64,000 bases of DNA, taken from the NCBI RefSeq assembly GCF_004138335.1, contig NZ_RYFW01000002.1:291501-355500 (forward strand). Direction: 5' to 3'. Shown one piece after another: positions 38,570 to 47,901 of the stretch; within the stretch, counting starts at the first letter, position 1, and each line of letters begins with the position of its first letter. The notes beneath the pieces are model-generated. The model saw only the letters and a list, made by a program, of their open reading frames with translations. It did not search any database and had not been told where the DNA came from. The position numbers and the translations under genes were made by a program. This stretch comes from Peristeroidobacter agariperforans (GTDB lineage Bacteria; Pseudomonadota; Gammaproteobacteria; Steroidobacterales; Steroidobacteraceae).

Positions 38570-38917
38570 TTAGAAGGATTTGCCGTCTACCGGCTTGCGC
38601 TTGATGGCCGTCAGGTCGAAGTCTTCCAAACAGCGCACGTTGATGGCGGCCATCTTGCCGCCTTTGGGGTTCGTGCCGATGCCGAACGGCGCGCAGCCGC
38701 AGCGCTTGCAGAAGTGGTGCTGGATGACGTGCTTGTTGAAGGTGTATGCGCCCAGGCTCGACGCACCTTTGTTGAGCTGCAGGTGTTCGTGCGGAATGAA
38801 CGTCAGCAGGTAACCCTTGCGACTGCAGTGCGAGCAGTTGCACTCCATCACTTCATCAAAGCTGGCTTCGAACTCGAACGCGATGTCGCCGCAATGGCAG
38901 CTGCCGGTGTATTTCAT
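38570..38917 (-). CDS. GFA / CENP-V family zinc-binding protein
   Basis: A 115-residue protein of the glutathione-dependent formaldehyde-activating fold. The zinc cysteines are in GSCHCGDIAFEFE, CNCSHCSRKG and FCKRCGCAPFG. Members bind zinc and sometimes glutathione adducts; enzymatic function is often unproven. It converges on the porin gene with a three-base gap and follows the NIPSNAP-like gene on the same strand, 12 bases apart. Confidence 0.92.
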   Translation of the reverse strand: MKYTGSCHCGDIAFEFEASFDEVMECNCSHCSRKGYLLTFIPHEHLQLNKGASSLGAYTFNKHVIQHHFCKRCGCAPFGIGTNPKGGKMAAINVRCLEDFDLTAIKRKPVDGKSF

Positions 38918-38929
38918 GATGAGAGTTCC

Positions 38930-39364
38930 TTATTGAAAGACCTGGGTCGGAGAGTAGTCCTGTACTGTCAGCACACGGTCTTCGATGTCACCGACCAACT
39001 GACCGTGCTGGGCGGCGGTCCGCTTCTTGATCGCGGCCCATTCCTGATCGGCCATGAATCTGGCCCAGCGATCGGTCAGGGTCGCCTGATCCGGCCACTG
39101 TAACAAGTAAACGAATTCGGTGCGTTCCTCGTGCCTGGTTTCCCACTGCGCAACGATCTTGAAGTCGTACTTCGCCATGATGCGCATGGCGTGATCGCGG
39201 AAGCGTTCGTGGAACGCTTGTTTGTTGTTCTCGAAGATCTGGTAGATGCGCAGCTGATGGATGACTCGCGGCTGCTCAGCCGCCGACGCCAGCTGCGGCA
39301 CGGTTGCAAGTAAAAGCACTGCTGCCAATGCCAGGACCGTGGTTCGCAGGAATTCCTTCGCCAT
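38930..39364 (-). CDS. Exported NIPSNAP family protein
   Basis: A 144-residue protein. ATG 39364 (MAKEFLRTT) is chosen because GAGGAG lies six bases before it; upstream in-frame starts overlap that site. A signal peptide is followed by the NIPSNAP pattern (VIHQLRIYQIFENNKQAFHE, then VYLLQWPDQATLTDRWARFM). The domain has a ferredoxin-like fold; its function is generally unknown. It is probably co-transcribed with the GFA-type gene downstream and lies just after the repair operon, 28 bases past the ligase stop. Confidence 0.85.
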   Translation of the reverse strand: MAKEFLRTTVLALAAVLLLATVPQLASAAEQPRVIHQLRIYQIFENNKQAFHERFRDHAMRIMAKYDFKIVAQWETRHEERTEFVYLLQWPDQATLTDRWARFMADQEWAAIKKRTAAQHGQLVGDIEDRVLTVQDYSPTQVFQ

Positions 39365-39391
39365 TGCCATCTCCTCGAGTGAGGGCAAATG

Positions 39392-41014
39392 TTAGCTGCT
39401 TCGGCGGATTTCGTCAGGCGCTTGCATGAGCATCGCTTGCAGATTCGCGAGCGTGTCTGCTTCGCTGGCCGGTTTGTCGGTGCGCCAGCGCAGGATTCGC
39501 GGAAAGCGCAGCGCAATTCCGGATTTGTGACGAGCCGACGCTGCGATGCCTTCATAGGCCAGCTCGAAAACCTGGCTGGGCTCGACCGAGCGCACCGGGC
39601 CGAATTTCTCCAGTGTGTGGGCGCGAATCCAGCGATCGAGCTGCTCGACTTCCGGATTGCTCAAGCCGGAATAGGCTTTGGCGACGGGCACCAGCTCTTG
39701 CTCGCGCCACACGCCGAACGTGTAGTCGGTGTAGAGATTCGAACGCCGGCCCTGCCCGGGCTGGGCGTAAATCATGACTGCGTCGAAGGAGTGCGGCTCG
39801 ATCTTCCATTTCCACCACGCGCCGCGTTGGCGGCCGGTGCCGTAGCTGGAATCCAGCGCCTTCAGCATCAAGCCTTCCACGTTGCGCTGTCGCGAGGCAG
39901 AGCGCGCGCCAGCAAGCTCGTCCCAAGTCGAGCCAATCACCAGAGGTGAGGTCTGCAGGAGGGGTGAAGCATTTGCCAGCAAGCGTTCCAGATGAGCGCG
40001 ACGTTCTCGCAAAGGCGCTGCGCGCAGATCCTGACCCTCCAGCTCCAGCAAGTCGTAGGCGAGAAACTGCACTGGCACGGCGGCAAGAATGGCGGCGCTG
40101 AGCTTCTTGCGGCCGATGCGCTGTTGTAACGAAGCGAACGGCTGAATGCGTCCATCCTTCCAGGCGACGACTTCGCCATCGAGCACGATGCCATCGGGCA
40201 GGGTGGCTGCCGCGTCGATGATTTCTGGAAAGCGTTCGGTGATGCGTTCCTCGCCGCGCGACCACAGGTGACATTCGCCGGCGCGGCGAATGAGTTGGCC
40301 ACGGATGCCGTCCCATTTCCATTCGGCCTGCCACGCTTCGCGGTCGCCGAGTTGGCTCGGCTCGCCTTCGAGCGGCGACGCCAGAAAGAAGGGGTAAGGA
40401 ACGGCTGGATCGGTGCGTGGGCTCTCGGCTGCGTGTAACCCCTGCCAGAAGCGGGCGCCCGGTTGCCATTCACCCATGAGCCGGCCCGCAAGCTCGCTGC
40501 GGTCGATGCCGGTGACCTCTGCGAGCGCCCGCGTTACCAACAGTTGCGACACGCCGACGCGCAGCTCGCCGGTCAGCAGTTTGTTCAACAGGAAACATTG
40601 GCGATACGGCAGCTCGCGCCACCAGCCGGCGATGGATTGGCGCCGAATGTCGTCGTCCGCGTCGCGCAATGGGAGCAAGCGGTCTTCGATCCAGTCGGCG
40701 AGCGGCGTGTCGTCTGCGCTGGCTTCGCTGTGCGCCGTTCCCGCTGTGAGCAGCGCGATGGTTTCGGCGAGGTCGCCCACGGAGGCGTAGGATTCATCGA
40801 TCAGCCATTCGGGCAGCCCGGCTTCGTCGATCAACCAGCGTTTCAATAGTGCCGGGCCGATGAAACGTTTGAGGCGTCGGCCGGACAATATGTACGTGGC
40901 CCACGCGGCGTCGGCCGGCGGCGCTTCGCGAAAATAGCGAGCCATGGCCGCAACTTTCAGATTGGTCGACTGCGTCGTATCGAGCTCTTCGTAGAGTGCG
41001 GCGAAGGCTCTCAT
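39392..41014 (-). CDS. ATP-dependent DNA ligase (exonuclease-associated family)
   Basis: A 540-residue ligase read from ATG 41014. An N-terminal DNA-binding domain (1-200) precedes the nucleotidyltransferase core with adenylation lysine 233 in AEWKWDGIRGQ, motif III-IV residues in LDGEVVAW, and motif V in RGAWWKWK. The OB-fold domain follows (TDYTFGVWREQELVPVAKAY). It seals nicks using ATP. This family is normally encoded with an MBL-fold exonuclease, as here: the two genes overlap by four bases (ATGA). The usual third and fourth partners, an Lhr-type helicase and a phosphoesterase, are missing. Confidence 0.93.
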   Translation of the reverse strand: MRAFAALYEELDTTQSTNLKVAAMARYFREAPPADAAWATYILSGRRLKRFIGPALLKRWLIDEAGLPEWLIDESYASVGDLAETIALLTAGTAHSEASADDTPLADWIEDRLLPLRDADDDIRRQSIAGWWRELPYRQCFLLNKLLTGELRVGVSQLLVTRALAEVTGIDRSELAGRLMGEWQPGARFWQGLHAAESPRTDPAVPYPFFLASPLEGEPSQLGDREAWQAEWKWDGIRGQLIRRAGECHLWSRGEERITERFPEIIDAAATLPDGIVLDGEVVAWKDGRIQPFASLQQRIGRKKLSAAILAAVPVQFLAYDLLELEGQDLRAAPLRERRAHLERLLANASPLLQTSPLVIGSTWDELAGARSASRQRNVEGLMLKALDSSYGTGRQRGAWWKWKIEPHSFDAVMIYAQPGQGRRSNLYTDYTFGVWREQELVPVAKAYSGLSNPEVEQLDRWIRAHTLEKFGPVRSVEPSQVFELAYEGIAASARHKSGIALRFPRILRWRTDKPASEADTLANLQAMLMQAPDEIRRSS

Positions 41015-42018
41015 TGCTGCTCCTCGTCGCCGTACGCCGTTTCGAGCGCGCTGGCGGAGATGCCCAGTTCGTTCAAGTAACGAGCGAGGGCGTCGGAATA
41101 GCCATGAGTCAACAGAATTCTGCCTGCGCCGGTTGCTTTGAATGTTTCGATGAGACCCGGCCAATCGACATGGTCTGAAAGAACAAAGCCGCGGTCATAG
41201 CCGCGCCGGCGACGGTTGCCGCGCACGCGCATCCACCCCGAGCAGAAGCCGCTAGAGTGATCGCCGAAGCGTCGCATCCATGGCGTGCCGGCGGCGCTCG
41301 GCGGGGCAATGATGAGTGCGCCTTTATAGTCAGTTTTGCTCTGCCCCGTAACAGGCATGGCCGGCAGCATTTCGACGCCCTGGTGCCGATACACCTCGGT
41401 GAGGACGCTGACCGCGCCGTGCAAATAAACGGTTTCGTCGGTGAACGCCCGCAGCTCGGCCAGCACGCGTTGCGCTTTGCCGAGCGCGTAACAGAACAGC
41501 ACCGACGCGAGTCCGCGTTCGCGATTGGCGCGCCACCAATCGAAAATTTCTTCGACCACTTCGCCGGTGGGCTGCCATTGATACACCGGCAGCGCGAAAG
41601 TCGCTTCGCTGATGAAGACGTTGCACGGCAGGGGCTCGAACGCCGCACACGTTGGGTCGGGCTGCCGTTTGTAGTCGCCGGACACAACCCACACCTGACC
41701 CTCGTGCTCGATGCGCAACTGCGCCGAGCCGAGAATGTGACCGGCGGGATGCAATGAAATCGTGGTAGCGCCGAGCAGCAGCTGCTCGCCGTACTTCAGT
41801 GGCATCGGATGATGATCCGTGCCCAGGCGATGGCGCGCGATAGCCATGCCCGGCTCTGCAACGAAATAGCGCGCGCTGCCATGGCGCAGATGATCGCCAT
41901 GCGCATGCGTGATGACGGCCGTGTCTACGGGCCGCCAGGGATCGATATGAAATCCCCCGGCCGGACAATAAAGGCCGTTTTCTGTCACGGTCACCAGCGG
42001 CGGCGGCATTGCGGACAT
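41011..42018 (-). CDS. Ligase-associated MBL-fold DNA exonuclease
   Basis: A 335-residue metallo-beta-lactamase-fold protein. The metal motif HAHGDH is at residues 38-43, with further histidines in HPAGHILGSAQ and the aspartate in VVSGDYK, then SDHVDWPGL. This matches the exonuclease family found beside ATP-dependent DNA ligases. It is thought to trim DNA ends before sealing. ATG 42018 is chosen, 19 bases past the UdgX stop; an earlier start would overlap that gene. Its stop overlaps the ligase start. Confidence 0.9.
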   Translation of the reverse strand: MSAMPPPLVTVTENGLYCPAGGFHIDPWRPVDTAVITHAHGDHLRHGSARYFVAEPGMAIARHRLGTDHHPMPLKYGEQLLLGATTISLHPAGHILGSAQLRIEHEGQVWVVSGDYKRQPDPTCAAFEPLPCNVFISEATFALPVYQWQPTGEVVEEIFDWWRANRERGLASVLFCYALGKAQRVLAELRAFTDETVYLHGAVSVLTEVYRHQGVEMLPAMPVTGQSKTDYKGALIIAPPSAAGTPWMRRFGDHSSGFCSGWMRVRGNRRRRGYDRGFVLSDHVDWPGLIETFKATGAGRILLTHGYSDALARYLNELGISASALETAYGDEEQQ

Positions 42019-42037
42019 TTGTAGAGCAAGCGCGCCG

Positions 42038-43414
42038 TCAGGCGGCGAGTTCCCGAGCACGACGCAAGTCGTCCACCAGGTGAGAGCTCAGTTGCCCGGC
42101 ATTCGACGGATCGGCCCGCAGAATGGCCGATGGATGGTAGGTGCACACAATTTGCGCTCCGCTGGCGTGCGGAATTTGCAACTGACGCGCCGATTCGATG
42201 GAGTCGGTCAGGCCGGCGAGCGCGCGTAGTGCCGACGCGCCAAGGGCGACGATGATGCGAGGCTTGACCTGCGACACTTCGGCGTCGAGCCAGTGATTGC
42301 ACGCGGCGACTTCCGAAGCATCCGGCCGCTTATGCAATCGACGCTTGCCGCGCGGCTGCCATTTGAAATGTTTGACGGCATTCGTGATGTACAGCTCGCT
42401 GCGCTCGAGGCCGGCGGTTTTCAGTGCGCTATCGAGCACACGGCCCGCCGGGCCGACGAACGGGCGGCCGCGCAGGTCTTCTTCATCGCCGGGCTGCTCG
42501 CCGACCAGCATGATGGTTGCCGACGTAGAGCCTTCGCCGAGCACGGCTTGGGTGGCGTGACGCCAGATATCGCATCGGCGGCAAGCGGACGGTCCGCCGG
42601 AATGATCGGGCAAGTCGGCCAGCGCGCGCTGCATGGCTCGGGCTTTGGCAAGCTCCAGGTCCATCGCTTCACGCTGTCGTTGGGCAAAGCTCGCCTGACC
42701 ATCGCGCAACAGCGTTTGAATCTCGACCGATTCGGGCAAGTTGCGCCAGTATCGCTGCGGCATCTCGCGTCGCATCGCCGGCGGGTTGATGCGAGACACG
42801 TTGCAGATGTTTCGATAGTACGTGCGCCATAAGCCTTCGTGGGCATCCGCTTTGGGCAGCGTCGACTTGTCCGGCGTCTCGACGAACTGCAATTCGCCGT
42901 TCTGCCACAGCGCGGTGCCGCCCGGCGTGGCGATCATCCATTCCATGTTGGGAAACCGCTTGCAGAAGAAGCCCACACCCCGACGCAGGATGTCGTGAGT
43001 CGGCTCGAACCACGCGAAGTACTTCGTTTCGCCGTGCTCGTCGGTCATCTCGCGGAAGCGCACGAACGCGTGCATCTTGTGCACTTCGCGATTCACCGCG
43101 CTTTCCATTTGCACGGCGCGGTGTACGTCAGGATCGGCGGCATCTTCGAGGAGGCGCGGCTGTCGCAGCGAACGCCACGCGAGGCGATACATCAAATCCC
43201 ACCGGCCGTCGTGACGATAGCAACTGAGCGCTTCGAGCAATTCCATCAGCTGCCGCGACAATCTCAAAGCCGCGGAGGCTGCGATGGAGGGCGCCAGCGG
43301 CTCGAAATGCTGGCCGAGTCGCCACTCCATTTCCTCAGGCGCGATGCCTGCAGACAATAGCGGGCGCGCCACATCGCGCCATTGCGTGAATCCTTGTACG
43401 CAGGCTGAGTACAT
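42038..43414 (-). CDS. udgX: UdgX-type uracil-DNA glycosylase fused to DUF4130 domain
   Basis: A 458-residue fusion. Residues 1-235 are the DUF4130 domain found with repair-type radical SAM proteins. Residues 275-458 are a family 4-like uracil-DNA glycosylase with iron-sulfur cysteines (ACRRCDIW) and the active-site block GEQPGDEED at 305-313. The UdgX-specific insert KRRLHKRP carries histidine 361, the residue that in studied UdgX proteins bonds covalently to the site left by uracil. The late motif YHPSAILR is present. The start is ATG 43414, two bases after the radical SAM stop. It probably traps or removes uracil from DNA. Confidence 0.93.
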   Translation of the reverse strand: MYSACVQGFTQWRDVARPLLSAGIAPEEMEWRLGQHFEPLAPSIAASAALRLSRQLMELLEALSCYRHDGRWDLMYRLAWRSLRQPRLLEDAADPDVHRAVQMESAVNREVHKMHAFVRFREMTDEHGETKYFAWFEPTHDILRRGVGFFCKRFPNMEWMIATPGGTALWQNGELQFVETPDKSTLPKADAHEGLWRTYYRNICNVSRINPPAMRREMPQRYWRNLPESVEIQTLLRDGQASFAQRQREAMDLELAKARAMQRALADLPDHSGGPSACRRCDIWRHATQAVLGEGSTSATIMLVGEQPGDEEDLRGRPFVGPAGRVLDSALKTAGLERSELYITNAVKHFKWQPRGKRRLHKRPDASEVAACNHWLDAEVSQVKPRIIVALGASALRALAGLTDSIESARQLQIPHASGAQIVCTYHPSAILRADPSNAGQLSSHLVDDLRRARELAA

Positions 43415-43416
43415 CG

Positions 43417-44637
43417 TCAGAACAACGATTGCTGTTCCGGCGCGCCGATCAGTGCACCCCGCAAGCCGTCGGAGCTGCGATCGCTTTGCCGCGGCCGATA
43501 GTCGGCCGTACAAATGAAGTGGCGGGCGCGCTTCAGTGTTGCGCCGAGTGTTTTCAGATCCTCGTAACGCAGCTTGCGGTGGCGACGCGAGCTGATGATG
43601 CGATCGACTACTCGCACGCCGAGCCCTGGTACTCGCAGGAGCAAGTGACGATCGGCCGTGTTTACATCGACCGGGAATTGCTGCCGATTCGCCAGGGCCC
43701 AGGTCGTCTTTGGATCCACGCTCAAATCCAGCTTGCCGCCGGGCATGGCCTGCGCGAGTTCGCCGACCGAGAATTCGTAGTAACGCATCAGCCAATCGGC
43801 TTGATACAAGCGGTGCTCGCGCATCAGCGGCGGTGCGCGATTCGGCAGACGCGCGGAGGCGCGTTGAATCGGACTGAATGCCGAGTAATAGATCCGACGC
43901 AGCTTGTACGAGCGATACAGCGTATCCGCCGTCTCGATGATGGACGCGTCGGAGCTCTCGTCGGCGCCAACGATCAGCTGCGTGCTCTGGCCTGCGGGAG
44001 AAAAGCGCGGGGCCTTCGCGCCGCCGTCCGCTTTCTCGTCGAGCTTCAGTCGAATTTCGCCCATGGCGCGCTTGATGGAGACATCGCTCTTTTCCGGCGC
44101 CAGGGTCGTGAGCGCTTCACGGGTCGGCAGTTCGATGTTGACGCTCAATCGGTCGGCATAACGGCCGGCCGCTTCGACCAATTCGGGGCTCGCTTCCGGA
44201 ATGGTCTTCAAATGAATGTAGCCGCGAAACTCGTGCACTTCGCGCAGCGTGCGAGCCACTGCCACCAACTGCTCCATCGTGTAGTCGGCGTTGCGGATGA
44301 TGCCGGAGCTGAGGAACAGGCCTTCGATGTAGTTGCGCCGATAGAACGAGAGCGTCAGATCGACCACTTCCGGCACCGAGAAGCGTGCTCGTGGGATGTC
44401 GCTCGATCTTCGATTGATGCAGTAAAGGCAATCGTACAGGCAGAAGTTGGTCAGCAGGATCTTCAGCAGCGACACGCAGCGGCCGTCGGGTGTGTAGCTG
44501 TGACAGATGCCCATGCCTGTGGTCGAGCCCATGCCTTTGCCCGGAGCCGCGCTGCGTTTGGGCGCGCCGCTGCTGGCGCACGAAGCGTCGTATTTCGCGG
44601 CATCGGCCAGGATGGCCAGCTTGGTTTCCAGATCCAT
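43417..44637 (-). CDS. Radical SAM protein of the UdgX-linked DNA repair/modification family
   Basis: A 406-residue protein read from ATG 44637. The radical SAM cluster motif is C66xxxC70xxC73 (NFCLYDCLYCINR). The C-terminal third has a helix-hairpin-helix DNA-binding motif (VDVNTADRHLLLRVPGLGVR). Two further cysteines (ICHSY, GRCVS) lie before the cluster. This family always occurs with DUF4130 or UdgX proteins, and the reaction is unknown. It is the first gene of the four-gene repair operon. A LexA-like box and a promoter-like arrangement lie just before the start, with no ribosome binding site between. Confidence 0.92.
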   Translation of the reverse strand: MDLETKLAILADAAKYDASCASSGAPKRSAAPGKGMGSTTGMGICHSYTPDGRCVSLLKILLTNFCLYDCLYCINRRSSDIPRARFSVPEVVDLTLSFYRRNYIEGLFLSSGIIRNADYTMEQLVAVARTLREVHEFRGYIHLKTIPEASPELVEAAGRYADRLSVNIELPTREALTTLAPEKSDVSIKRAMGEIRLKLDEKADGGAKAPRFSPAGQSTQLIVGADESSDASIIETADTLYRSYKLRRIYYSAFSPIQRASARLPNRAPPLMREHRLYQADWLMRYYEFSVGELAQAMPGGKLDLSVDPKTTWALANRQQFPVDVNTADRHLLLRVPGLGVRVVDRIISSRRHRKLRYEDLKTLGATLKRARHFICTADYRPRQSDRSSDGLRGALIGAPEQQSLF

Positions 44638-44676
44638 GTCTGGCTGTATATACAGCTCGCAACCGTGGCGCAAGCT
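44638..44676 (-). promoter_or_regulatory. Candidate sigma-70 promoter with LexA-like box (repair operon)
   Basis: On the minus strand TTGCGC and TATACA are separated by 17 bases; TATACA ends seven bases before the ATG, so transcription could begin at the start codon itself (leaderless mRNA). Overlapping the -10 element is a CTG-N10-CAG site at 44640-44655 (plus strand CTGGCTGTATATACAG), which matches 13 of 16 bases of the E. coli LexA box. Binding there would block polymerase. The motif is seen, and function is inferred. Confidence 0.55.
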
Positions 44677-44712: not shown

Positions 44713-44740
44713 AAAAAACTGGCAGCTTTCAGCGCTGAAA
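44713..44740 (-). terminator. Weak terminator candidate after the Lrp-type gene
   Basis: On the minus strand a CAGC/GCTG stem at the end of the gene, inside the palindrome TTTCAGCGCTGAAA (44727-44740), is followed by CCAG and a run of six T. The stem is short, so confidence is low. Confidence 0.35.
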
Positions 44741-45175
44741 CTTGGTGGACAGGACGATGGAGGAGGTGGTGCGTTCGACGCCGTCCAGCTCGCCGATGGA
44801 GTCGATCAGTTCGTCCATGTCGGTGATGGAGTCGGTGACCGCCAGCGCCATCAGATCGAATGCGCCGCTGACGGCCTGCAGAACGCGCACGTCTTTGAGC
44901 TTGCGGACTTCGCGCTCGACCTGGCTTGCGTGCTTCGGCTTCACCGTGATCATGACGTAGGCGTGCACGGCGCCGCGTTCCTGCGTCTCCGACAGGCGCA
45001 CCGAATAGCCCGTGATCACCTTGGATCGCTCCAGCCGTTCCAGCCGACTCTGCACGGTGGTACGCGACAGCCCGAGGCTGCGGGCGAGGGCGGCGGTCGG
45101 GGCGCGAGCGTTCTCGCGCAACAGCGCAATCAGTTGCTGGTCGATGGAGTCGAGAGGTTGCGGGCGCGGCTTCAT
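44729..45175 (-). CDS. Lrp/AsnC family transcriptional regulator
   Basis: A 148-residue regulator read from ATG 45175. The N-terminal helix-turn-helix is clear (IDQQLIALLRENARAPTAAL, then LSRTTVQSRLERLER), followed by the RAM/AsnC ligand domain (AYVMITVKPKHASQVEREVR, then VSGAFDLMALAVTDS). Lrp-type proteins respond to amino acids. It is divergent from two lysine-degradation genes across 119 bases, so it is probably their regulator, perhaps sensing lysine or an intermediate. Confidence 0.93.
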   Translation of the reverse strand: MKPRPQPLDSIDQQLIALLRENARAPTAALARSLGLSRTTVQSRLERLERSKVITGYSVRLSETQERGAVHAYVMITVKPKHASQVEREVRKLKDVRVLQAVSGAFDLMALAVTDSITDMDELIDSIGELDGVERTTSSIVLSTKFQR

Positions 45176-45294
45176 GCGAAAACGATCATGGCTTCGGCGA
45201 AATGACGAATGGAACCGACAAAACGCCGAAACATTGCCCACTGCTCGGCGCTTTGGCAATACCCGCTGGCGCGGACCCTGCCGACAATGCCCGG
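45176..45294. promoter_or_regulatory. Divergent control region, Lrp-type gene and lysine catabolism genes
   Basis: Two inverted repeats are visible: TTCGGCG (45193-45199) with CGCCGAA (45224-45230), and ATTGCC (45233-45238) with GGCAAT (45255-45260). These are candidate regulator sites in the shared promoter. No clear -35/-10 pair was identified. Confidence 0.4.
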
Positions 45295-46371
45295 ATGAAA
45301 CACATTGTCGTTGCAGGCGCCGGCAAGATCGGCGTCACCATTGCCGATATGCTCGCCGCCAGCGGCGACTATCGCGTCACCCTGGCGGATCGCGCGGTGG
45401 GCCGTTTCGACGGACTGAACCCATCCATCGTGACCAAGGCGGTCGACGTTACCAATCCGCGCGAGCTGAGCGGTCTGCTCAAGGGCAGTTTCGCGGTGCT
45501 GAGCGCGGTGCCGTTCAACCTGACTGGCGACATCGCCGTCGCGGCCAAGGAAGCCGGCGCTCACTATCTCGATCTCACCGAAGACGTGGCGACGACGCGC
45601 AAGGTGAAGCGCCTGGCGGAAGGTGCGCAGACGGCGTTCATTCCCCAGTGCGGCCTGGCGCCGGGCTTCATCACCATCGCGGCTTACGATCTGATCCGCC
45701 GCTTCGACACACTGCACGACGTGCGCATGCGAGTCGGCGCGCTGCCCAAGTTCCCGTCGAACGCGCTCAACTACAACCTGACCTGGAGCACCGAAGGGCT
45801 GATCAACGAGTATTGCGAGCCCTGCGAAGCCATCGTCAACGGCGAGCGCCGCGAAGTGCCGCCGATGGAAGAGCTCGAGGAGTTCGCGCTCGACGGTGTG
45901 ACTTATGAGGCGTTCAATACGTCGGGCGGCTTGGGTTCGTTGTGCGAGACCTTGAACGGCAAGGTGCGCAATCTGAACTACCGCACGATTCGCTATCCCG
46001 GCCACGCCGCCATCATGAAGGCGCTGCTCAACGATCTGCGTCTGCGCGACCGTCGCGATGTGCTCAAGGACATCCTGGAGAACGCGCTGCCGGCGACGTT
46101 GCAGGATGTGGTCATCGTGTTCGTGACGGTCAGCGGCAAGCGCAACGGCCAGCTCGTGCAGGACACATACGCGAACAAGATCTACAGCGCCGAGATCGGC
46201 GGTGTGATGCGTAGCGCAATTCAGATTACGACGGCGGCGGGGATCACGGGCGTGCTCGATCTGCTCGCGACCGGGAAGATTGCCGATCGCGGCTTCATTC
46301 GACAGGAAGATATCGATCTGAATACGTTCCTGGCGAATCGCTTCGGGCGCGCCTACGCGCCCCGCTCGTAA
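45295..46371 (+). CDS. Saccharopine dehydrogenase family protein
   Basis: A 358-residue protein from ATG 45295. The Rossmann motif GAGKIG opens the protein (HIVVAGAGKIGVTIADMLAA). A saccharopine-dehydrogenase C-terminal region follows (LPKFPSNALNYNLTWSTEGL, then EELEEFALDGVTYEAFNTSG). It would split saccharopine into glutamate and alpha-aminoadipate semialdehyde, or make related aminoadipate conversions. The following gene, nine bases later, encodes an ALDH7-type dehydrogenase for that semialdehyde, which supports the assignment. Confidence 0.9.
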   Translation: MKHIVVAGAGKIGVTIADMLAASGDYRVTLADRAVGRFDGLNPSIVTKAVDVTNPRELSGLLKGSFAVLSAVPFNLTGDIAVAAKEAGAHYLDLTEDVATTRKVKRLAEGAQTAFIPQCGLAPGFITIAAYDLIRRFDTLHDVRMRVGALPKFPSNALNYNLTWSTEGLINEYCEPCEAIVNGERREVPPMEELEEFALDGVTYEAFNTSGGLGSLCETLNGKVRNLNYRTIRYPGHAAIMKALLNDLRLRDRRDVLKDILENALPATLQDVVIVFVTVSGKRNGQLVQDTYANKIYSAEIGGVMRSAIQITTAAGITGVLDLLATGKIADRGFIRQEDIDLNTFLANRFGRAYAPRS

Positions 46372-46380
46372 GGCATCAAC

Positions 46381-47901
46381 ATGACTAATTTGACCGTTGT
46401 CCAGGACGTGGCTGCGACATTGTCGCGGCTCGGTGTGCCGGCTGAGCGTGTGAGCGGCGGCAGCTTGATCGCGCGCTCGCCGATCAGCGGCGACATCGTC
46501 GGCCGGCTGCAAGAATGCTCTGCTCAGGAAGCCGGTGAGCAAATCGAACGCGCGCACCAAGCGTTCCTCGCGTGGCGCGCAGTGCCAGCGCCGAAGCGCG
46601 GCGAGCTGGTGCGTTTGTTTGGTGAAGAACTGCGCGCGGCGCGTGAAGATCTGGGGCGTCTCGTCACGCTCGAGGCGGGCAAGATCCTGTCCGAAGGGCA
46701 GGGCGAAGTGCAGGAGATGATCGACATTTGCGATTACGCGGTCGGTCTGTCGCGGCAGCTGTTCGGTCTCACGATTGCGTCCGAACGCGCCGAGCATCGC
46801 TTGATGGAGAACTGGCACCCGCTGGGCGTCGTCGGCGTGATCTCCGCATTCAACTTTCCAGTCGCCGTGTGGGCATGGAACGCGACGCTGGCGCTGGTTT
46901 GCGGCAACTCCGTCGTGTGGAAGCCGTCGGAGAAAACTCCGCTGACCGCACTTGCCGTGCAGACACTGTTCGAGCGCGCAGTTAAGAAATTCGGCGGAGT
47001 GCCCGAAGGCTTGTCGACTTTGTTGATCGGCGGCCGGGATGTCGGCGAGGTTCTGGTCGACCATCCGCGTGTTCCGTTGGTGTCGGCAACGGGCTCGACC
47101 CAGATGGGCCGAATGGTGGCTCCAAAGCTTGCTGCTCGCTTCGCTCGTGCCATTCTCGAACTGGGTGGCAACAATGGCGCAATCGTTTCTCCGACCGCCG
47201 ATATGGATCTGGCGCTGCGCGCCATTGCTTTCGGCGCGATGGGCACGGCAGGCCAGCGTTGCACGACTCTGCGCCGTTTGTTTGTTCACTCCGCCGTGTA
47301 CGACGACTGCGTGTCTCGACTGAAGAAGGTGTACGAGTCGGTCGCGATCGGCGATCCGCGGCGTCAGGATGTTCTGATCGGCCCGCTGGTAGACAAGCAG
47401 TCCTATCAGGCCATGCAGCAGTCGCTGCAGCAGGCCACCGCCATTGGCGGCAAGGTCGTCGGCGGCACGCGTGTCGCGCCGGACTTGGGCGACGACGCCT
47501 ATTACGTTCGCCCCGCGCTGGTCGAAGTGAGCTCGCAGGACGATGTGGTGCGCCGAGAAACGTTTGCTCCGATCCTGTACGTGATGAAGTACGAAAACCT
47601 GCAGGAAGCCGTTCGTCTGCACAACGACGTGCCGCAAGGCTTGTCTTCGTGCATCTTCACCAATGATCTGCGCGAGGCGGAATATTTCCTGTCGGCGCTT
47701 GGCTCGGACTGCGGTATCGCCAACGTCAACATCGGTCCTTCGGGCGCCGAAATCGGCGGCGCGTTCGGCGGCGAGAAAGAAACGGGCGGCGGTCGAGAGG
47801 CCGGCTCGGATTGCTGGAAAGGCTACATGCGCCGTGCGACCAACACGATCAACTACGGCTCGCGTCTGCCGCTGGCACAGGGCGTGAAGTTCGATATCTG
47901 A
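46381..47901 (+). CDS. Alpha-aminoadipate semialdehyde dehydrogenase (ALDH7 family)
   Basis: A 506-residue NAD-dependent aldehyde dehydrogenase. The catalytic glutamate is in LELGGNNGA and the nucleophile cysteine in GTAGQRCTTLRR, with the cofactor region GSTQMGRMVAPKLA. The sequence is of the ALDH7 type (antiquitin, AmaB), which oxidises alpha-aminoadipate semialdehyde to alpha-aminoadipate. Together with the saccharopine dehydrogenase this gives the last steps of the saccharopine lysine route. No lysine-ketoglutarate reductase gene is in the window. Confidence 0.92.
   Translation: MTNLTVVQDVAATLSRLGVPAERVSGGSLIARSPISGDIVGRLQECSAQEAGEQIERAHQAFLAWRAVPAPKRGELVRLFGEELRAAREDLGRLVTLEAGKILSEGQGEVQEMIDICDYAVGLSRQLFGLTIASERAEHRLMENWHPLGVVGVISAFNFPVAVWAWNATLALVCGNSVVWKPSEKTPLTALAVQTLFERAVKKFGGVPEGLSTLLIGGRDVGEVLVDHPRVPLVSATGSTQMGRMVAPKLAARFARAILELGGNNGAIVSPTADMDLALRAIAFGAMGTAGQRCTTLRRLFVHSAVYDDCVSRLKKVYESVAIGDPRRQDVLIGPLVDKQSYQAMQQSLQQATAIGGKVVGGTRVAPDLGDDAYYVRPALVEVSSQDDVVRRETFAPILYVMKYENLQEAVRLHNDVPQGLSSCIFTNDLREAEYFLSALGSDCGIANVNIGPSGAEIGGAFGGEKETGGGREAGSDCWKGYMRRATNTINYGSRLPLAQGVKFDI

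What the first reader, a model, noticed from the sequence alone, without database searches (positions are those of the whole stretch)
39392..44676. Four-gene DNA repair operon joining two known gene associations
Radical SAM protein, UdgX fusion, MBL exonuclease and ATP-dependent ligase genes are read together with gaps of 2 and 19 bases and one 4-base overlap. Established knowledge: radical SAM plus DUF4130/UdgX is one recurring pair, and exonuclease plus ligase (usually with Lhr helicase and a phosphoesterase) is another. Here they are merged and the Lhr helicase and phosphoesterase are missing. Inference: a complete path from recognising uracil or a related lesion to end-trimming and sealing, with the radical SAM enzyme doing an unknown step.
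Basis: partly seen in the sequence, partly recalled or inferred. Interest (0 to 1): 0.8.

Follow-up and report, generated by a model that had tools for sequence, protein, structure and literature searches.

The report
Merged UdgX, exonuclease and ligase operon
A soil bacterium keeps four DNA-repair genes from two usually separate systems as one tightly packed unit, and an unrelated bacterial group has built the same unit independently, which suggests that the two poorly understood systems work together.

Summary
The operon is real: radical SAM (TIGR03916), DUF4130-UdgX fusion, ligase-associated beta-CASP exonuclease (TIGR04122) and ATP-dependent ligase (TIGR04120), junctions +2, +19, -4. It is not strain-specific: four further Steroidobacter loci have it with near-identical junctions and purifying selection. 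The window genome has no ligase-associated phosphoesterase and no short Lhr over cut-off, whereas 9 of 9 sampled order relatives with the exonuclease have that Lhr and 8 of 9 the phosphoesterase. The same four-gene order occurs in one alphaproteobacterial genus; trees reject a common origin (AU p 2.5e-7, 1.3e-5). LexA-type boxes (recalled motifs) precede the radical SAM gene in 69 of 72 mostly beta/gamma loci and 80 of 82 loci of one alphaproteobacterial family, but rarely precede free-standing exonucleases. Steroidobacter instead has a conserved palindrome, CTGTATATACAG, regulator unknown. Best reading: exonuclease and ligase were recruited twice into a damage-controlled UdgX operon, perhaps to clear and seal UdgX-DNA adducts. 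Against: most genomes with both modules keep them apart. No biochemistry was tested.

The parts
44644..44655 (.). Perfect palindrome CTGTATATACAG, six bases before the rSAM start codon; candidate operator
   Evidence: Present in 5 of 5 Steroidobacter four-gene loci, 0 of 100 control segments from those loci; only copy in the window; expected 0.11 per 7.65 Mb by base composition. Regulator not identified.
43417..44637 (-). Radical SAM protein, TIGR03916 rSAM_link_UDG, 406 aa, with helix-hairpin-helix-like C-terminal part
   Evidence: 565 bits; Pfam Radical_SAM 34 bits, HHH_3 24.6 bits below its cut-off of 27; C66, C70, C73 invariant in 23 sequences
42038..43414 (-). DUF4130-UdgX fusion, 458 aa: DUF4130 part about 43402-42731, UdgX part about 42661-42059
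41011..42018 (-). Ligase-associated MBL/beta-CASP exonuclease, TIGR04122, 335 aa
   Evidence: 479 bits; H38, H40, D42, H43 invariant in 17 sequences
39392..41014 (-). ATP-dependent DNA ligase, TIGR04120 / LigB type, 540 aa
   Evidence: 642 bits; K233 of KWDG invariant in 14 sequences

Best explanation
A DNA-damage-response operon in which the exonuclease and ligase of the Lhr/ligase ('LigB') repair cluster have been recruited into the damage-controlled radical SAM-UdgX operon. Proposed working: (1) damage releases a repressor from the promoter palindrome and the four proteins are made together; (2) the radical SAM protein and the DUF4130 domain act on a damaged or modified pyrimidine, chemistry unknown; (3) the UdgX domain excises uracil or a related base and traps itself on the abasic sugar through H361; (4) the beta-CASP nuclease degrades the adduct-bearing strand; (5) after gap filling by a house polymerase the ligase seals. 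Shown here: gene content, order, conservation, intact catalytic residues, a second independent assembly, absence of the short Lhr and phosphoesterase from the genus, and LexA-type boxes before rSAM in other lineages. From literature: UdgX covalent capture. Inferred: co-transcription, the regulator in Steroidobacter, and steps 2, 4 and 5.
For: Near-identical junctions and dN/dS 0.034-0.116 in five Steroidobacter loci. Same four-gene order in G409 and G771, one alphaproteobacterial genus, with separate origin by AU tests on exonuclease and rSAM trees. rSAM and exonuclease co-occur in 70 genomes of 398, exonuclease alone 47, rSAM alone 14, neither 267. Apart from the window genome, 4 of 69 genomes with both have them within 7.1 kb against 0.26 expected, P 1.4e-4. 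LexA-type boxes before rSAM in 69 of 72 and 80 of 82 loci but before exonucleases in 0 of 9, 0 of 1, 1 of 28, 2 of 14 and 0 of 2; SOS control of the pair is predicted in print for Bacteroidetes (PMC8565304, passages). Nuclease profile matches human SNM1A at E 2.9e-8.
Against: Most genomes that have both modules do not join them: of 70, 24 have both on one contig and 5 within 7.1 kb. 14 rSAM genomes lack the exonuclease and 47 exonuclease genomes lack the rSAM, so neither needs the other. Exonuclease-ligase without Lhr also exists without rSAM in G325 and G408, so the pair may work alone. The co-occurrence and proximity tests are not corrected for kinship. CPSF-type RNA nucleases match the exonuclease better than SNM1A does (E down to 1.6e-18). 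No transcript or enzyme data; no lexA was found to tie the palindrome to SOS.
Confidence: 0.45

Rival explanations
1. Shared timing only. The exonuclease and ligase gain from a damage-inducible promoter but act on other lesions such as crosslinks or broken ends; nothing is handed on from UdgX.
For: The boxes sit before rSAM and rarely before free-standing exonucleases, so joining changes control in any case; exonuclease-ligase pairs exist without rSAM.
Against: Of all damage-inducible operons the same partner was chosen at least twice in the same order, but no census of other partners was made.
Confidence: 0.35
2. Ordinary uracil base excision operon: turnover excision of uracil followed by trimming and sealing.
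For: The UDG-superfamily domain, a nuclease and a ligase are present.
Against: R359 and H361 are the markers of self-trapping UdgX, not of turnover family-4 UDGs (PMC10359453 passages).
Confidence: 0.07
3. Chance neighbourhood or hitchhiking with no functional link.
For: The joined arrangement is rare: 3 of 80 loci (all Steroidobacter), 2 of 80 newly read loci of the alphaproteobacterial family with the exonuclease near.
Against: Independent repetition, overlapping or near-overlapping junctions in both lineages and purifying selection.
Confidence: 0.13

Closest known systems
Radical SAM (COG4277/TIGR03916) + DUF4130-UdgX (COG1573/TIGR03914) SOS gene pair
   Same: Both genes, order and spacing; 76 of 80 loci have the rSAM directly upstream, the other 4 being cut by contig ends. 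SOS control of the pair is predicted in PMC8565304 (passages); PMC3765255 notes the DUF4130, SplB-like radical SAM and UDG link (figure legend).
   Different: Here exonuclease and ligase follow in the same unit, and the promoter has CTGTATATACAG instead of a known LexA-type box.
Ligase-associated (LigB) repair cluster: exonuclease TIGR04122, ligase TIGR04120, Lhr-Core TIGR04121, phosphoesterase TIGR04123
   Same: Exonuclease and ligase, adjacent and in the same order as in order relatives such as L123-L127. The four-gene cluster is described in PMC10140301 (passage), which says its role is not known.
   Different: No short Lhr or phosphoesterase over cut-off in the genome or the genus; joined to rSAM-UdgX.
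Phaeobacter inhibens plasmid pP66_a repair region
   Same: lig-exo and rSAM-UdgX within 9.4 kb.
   Different: Opposite strands, separated by MATE, topoisomerase IB and dehydrogenase genes; not one operon.
SNM1A/DCLRE1A crosslink-repair nucleases
   Same: MBL/beta-CASP superfamily, profile match E 2.9e-8.
   Different: Remote; CPSF-type nucleases match better (E to 1.6e-18); substrate here untested.

Membership tests
UdgX | Curated family model over cut-off | tested here: met
   TIGR03914 257.6 bits against 189.95
UdgX | R-loop Arg and His plus Gln in motif A (R107, H109, Q53 of M. smegmatis UdgX, as given in PMC10359453) | tested here: met
   R359 and H361 invariant, Q307 nearly invariant over 29 sequences; the window has GEQPG and KRRLH
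UdgX | Covalent capture of uracil DNA | not testable with these tools
   Needs purified protein
rSAM_link_UDG radical SAM protein | Curated model over cut-off and CX3CX2C cluster motif | tested here: met
   TIGR03916 565 bits; C66, C70, C73 invariant
Ligase-associated four-gene (LigB) cluster | Exonuclease and ligase genes adjacent | tested here: met
Ligase-associated four-gene (LigB) cluster | Ligase-associated Lhr-Core helicase | tested here: not met
   Best TIGR04121 match 450.8 bits, cut-off 850, in a 1478-residue frame
Ligase-associated four-gene (LigB) cluster | Ligase-associated phosphoesterase | tested here: not met
   TIGR04123: 0 matches in the own genome
LexA (SOS) regulon | Known LexA-type box before the first gene | tested here: not met
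   No CTGTN8ACAG, GTTCN7GTTC or GAACN7GAAC in 5 of 5 Steroidobacter loci; motifs recalled
LexA (SOS) regulon | Binding of the organism's own LexA to the palindrome | tested here: inconclusive
   No lexA, recA or second palindrome copy in 400 kb of G048 and 400 kb of G000
SNM1-type crosslink nuclease | MBL/beta-CASP sequence kinship with HxHxDH motif | tested here: met
   DCLRE1A match E 2.9e-8; H38, H40, D42, H43
SNM1-type crosslink nuclease | 5' exonuclease that passes crosslinks | not testable with these tools
   Needs enzymology; recalled as the activity of SNM1A

The most novel reading that the evidence does not exclude
A repair pathway built round a deliberate protein-DNA crosslink: UdgX traps the lesion on itself as the first committed step, and a dedicated SNM1-like nuclease and ATP ligase remove the adduct and close the gap, in place of the Lhr/phosphoesterase branch of the LigB cluster. 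It would give a job both to UdgX and to the ligase-associated exonuclease. In Steroidobacter it would be run by a LexA-like regulator with a shortened dyad.
Probability: 0.3. Interest if true: 0.85.

Novelty: new variant of a known kind. Interest (0 to 1): 0.64.

Why it matters
The physiological role of UdgX is called largely unknown (PMC10359453, discussion passage) and the role of the ligase-associated cluster is called not currently known (PMC10140301, passage). A trapped UdgX has to be removed from DNA; the passages seen propose RecA-dependent routes or proteases. Two independent fusions of exactly these modules name a concrete candidate for that step and give natural minimal systems in which to test it. 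They would also bring the exonuclease and ligase under damage control, which most free-standing clusters looked at seem to lack.

Tried and rejected
Tried, rejected or left open. (a) Unique to this strain: rejected. (b) Chance neighbourhood: made unlikely by the second assembly and the conserved junctions. (c) Anti-phage defence: one weak PADLOC match for the rSAM (E 0.007), none for the other three. (d) Consensus promoters and terminators: 0 promoters; 7 terminator-like sites against a mean of 6.6 in shuffles, uninformative. (e) Fold of DUF4130: sequence search of solved structures matched only the UDG part, and the fold searches were filled by the UDG domain (residues 274-458), so DUF4130 was barely tested. 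The rSAM model (mean pLDDT 77) gave general radical-SAM matches such as HydE. (f) Regulator of the palindrome: open. (g) Text searches for the merged operon or its parts; neither the listings nor the passages read of eight papers described it. The library holds openly licensed PMC papers only, and the key paper on the Lhr-Core cluster was not held.

Limits of the counts. In one search, 153 of 249 genomes had the rSAM; I read 80 of these, chosen by hand mostly one per genus, plus L169 and L171, already known to have the exonuclease near; so 2 of 80 (G771, G782) is the unselected figure. In one search one locus (L021) was too short and is left out of the 72; exonuclease upstream stretches were usable in 28 of 30 and 2 of 3 in two groups. 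Trees used 46 of 79 exonucleases and 39 of 163 rSAM proteins extracted; 2 of 41 rSAM rows that I named fell out. Groups for the AU tests were named because of their gene order. rSAM was not searched in G600 or in the order sample as a whole, so where Steroidobacter got its rSAM-UdgX pair is open.

Full report
Observation. All are above their NCBIfam cut-offs. The rSAM start is the ATG at 44637; 44676 is the frame limit. Expected catalytic residues are intact and conserved: rSAM C66/C70/C73, UdgX E306, Q307, R359, H361, H427, exonuclease H38/H40/D42/H43, ligase K233. Which residues matter is recalled, except for UdgX.

Distribution in the genus. The nearest named relatives are Steroidobacter. 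The four genes also occur in S. agaridevorans (L010), a Steroidobacter MAG (L011) and S. gossypii (L012) and in G595 (L178), with the same junctions except one gap of 18. dN/dS is 0.034-0.116 in 16 comparisons. Of the 80 loci, 76 have the rSAM directly upstream of UdgX, 4 are cut by contig ends, and 77 show no exonuclease or ligase in the up to 10 kb held on each side.

What is missing. The own genome has no TIGR04123 match and no TIGR04121 match over cut-off. In the genus the phosphoesterase is over cut-off in 0 of 14 and the short Lhr in 0 of 13 plus the own genome. In the order sample 10 of 196 genomes have the exonuclease over cut-off; of the 9 others, 9 have the Lhr and 8 the phosphoesterase over cut-off. 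In the phylum sample 114 of 117 exonuclease genomes have the Lhr; the exceptions are the window genome, G325 and G408. The last two have exonuclease-ligase and no rSAM at E <= 1e-60, so the pair without Lhr does not depend on UdgX.

Independent assembly. In the phylum sample of 398 genomes, exonuclease is in 117 and rSAM in 84: both 70, exonuclease alone 47, rSAM alone 14, neither 267; odds ratio 28, Fisher p 3.6e-32, not corrected for kinship. Of the 70, 24 have both on one contig; 5 pairs lie within 7.1 kb and the next at 194 kb. Without the window genome 4 are seen against 0.26 expected, P 1.4e-4; these 4 come from two families (families). G409 (L169) has exactly rSAM-UdgX-exo-lig, junctions -4, -1, -4. 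In its family 153 of 249 genomes have the rSAM. Of 80 further loci read, two have the exonuclease near: G771, same genus, with the four genes (the ligase cut by the contig end), and G782 with lig-exo and rSAM-UdgX head to head. In G310, G418, G536 and a Phaeobacter plasmid the modules are near neighbours in other arrangements. The exonuclease tree places Steroidobacter within its own order and G409/G771 among alphaproteobacteria; holding them together is rejected (p-AU 2.5e-7). So does the rSAM tree (p-AU 1.3e-5). The four-gene operon therefore arose at least twice.

Control region. Before rSAM, CTGTN8ACAG occurs exactly in 69 of 72 usable loci outside Steroidobacter, against 14 of 1440 control segments. 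In the alphaproteobacterial family 75 of 82 have GAACN7GAAC and 5 others GTTCN7GTTC, 80 of 82 in all, against 14 and 13 of 1640 controls. I recall these as beta/gamma- and alphaproteobacterial LexA boxes. Both alphaproteobacterial four-gene operons have GTTCN7GTTC. SOS control of the COG1573-COG4277 pair is predicted for Bacteroidetes and cited for Verrucomicrobia and Alphaproteobacteria (PMC8565304, passages). Before exonucleases outside the four-gene operons such boxes occur in 0 of 9 (order), 0 of 1 (G600), 1 of 28 (phylum loci), 2 of 14 (alphaproteobacterial and plasmid loci, one being the box that L256 shares with rSAM) and 0 of 2. Joining the modules thus plausibly puts exonuclease and ligase under damage control. 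Steroidobacter has no such box (0 of 5) but CTGTATATACAG six bases before the start codon in 5 of 5, while the flank upstream of it varies. The genus DNA sampled (800 kb) held neither lexA nor recA by tblastn, so its regulator is unknown.

Mechanism. UdgX excises uracil and stays covalently bound through the R-loop histidine; its role is called largely unknown, and RecA-dependent routes or proteases are proposed for removal (PMC10359453, abstract and passages). The exonuclease is MBL/beta-CASP, matching CPSF-type nucleases best (E to 1.6e-18) and human SNM1A at 2.9e-8. I infer that it clears the adduct-bearing strand and that the ligase seals. The radical SAM step and DUF4130 are unassigned; invariant polar residues suggest that DUF4130 is an enzyme. 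The main rival, shared timing without hand-over, cannot be excluded by sequence. E. coli long Lhr is reported to be a uracil-DNA glycosylase (PMC10953399, passages) and the window genome has a long Lhr-like frame; whether that bears on the missing short Lhr is open.

Verdict. Observation confirmed; interpretation partly supported. Each protein and each pair is of a known kind; the merged, Lhr-free, twice-assembled operon was not found in the ten text searches made. I rate it a new variant of a known kind.

Noticed in passing
window 44644-44655: Perfect palindrome CTGTATATACAG before the rSAM gene, identical in five Steroidobacter loci; it resembles a gammaproteobacterial LexA box with the spacer shortened by four bases.
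   Followed up: partly
window 44729-47901: AsnC/Lrp-type regulator gene upstream of the operon, on its strand, divergent from a saccharopine-dehydrogenase-like gene and an L-piperidine-6-carboxylate dehydrogenase; probably a lysine breakdown locus. AsnC is kept upstream in L010, L011, L012 and L178.
   Followed up: no
window 38570-39388: NIPSNAP-family and GFA-family genes follow the ligase on the same strand and might be read through; NIPSNAP was matched in L010 and L012 but not in L011 or L178, so not core.
   Followed up: partly
L193 8239-17650: Phaeobacter inhibens plasmid pP66_a has lig-exo and rSAM-UdgX with topoisomerase IB and a MATE pump between them; rSAM and exonuclease each match 58 Phaeobacter plasmid records, of which I opened one.
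   Followed up: partly
L256 5809-9579: Alphaproteobacterial G782 has lig-exo and rSAM-UdgX head to head with one LexA-type box in the shared gap: a third way to put the exonuclease beside the rSAM promoter.
   Followed up: partly
L002 (G000:C9:1137608-1140181): The window genome has a 1478-residue frame matching TIGR04121 at 450.8 bits, probably a long Lhr, although the short ligase-associated Lhr is absent.
   Followed up: no
window 43417-44637: Besides the radical SAM triad, cysteines C20, C45 and C54 of the rSAM protein are invariant in 23 sequences; they could hold a second metal cluster.
   Followed up: no
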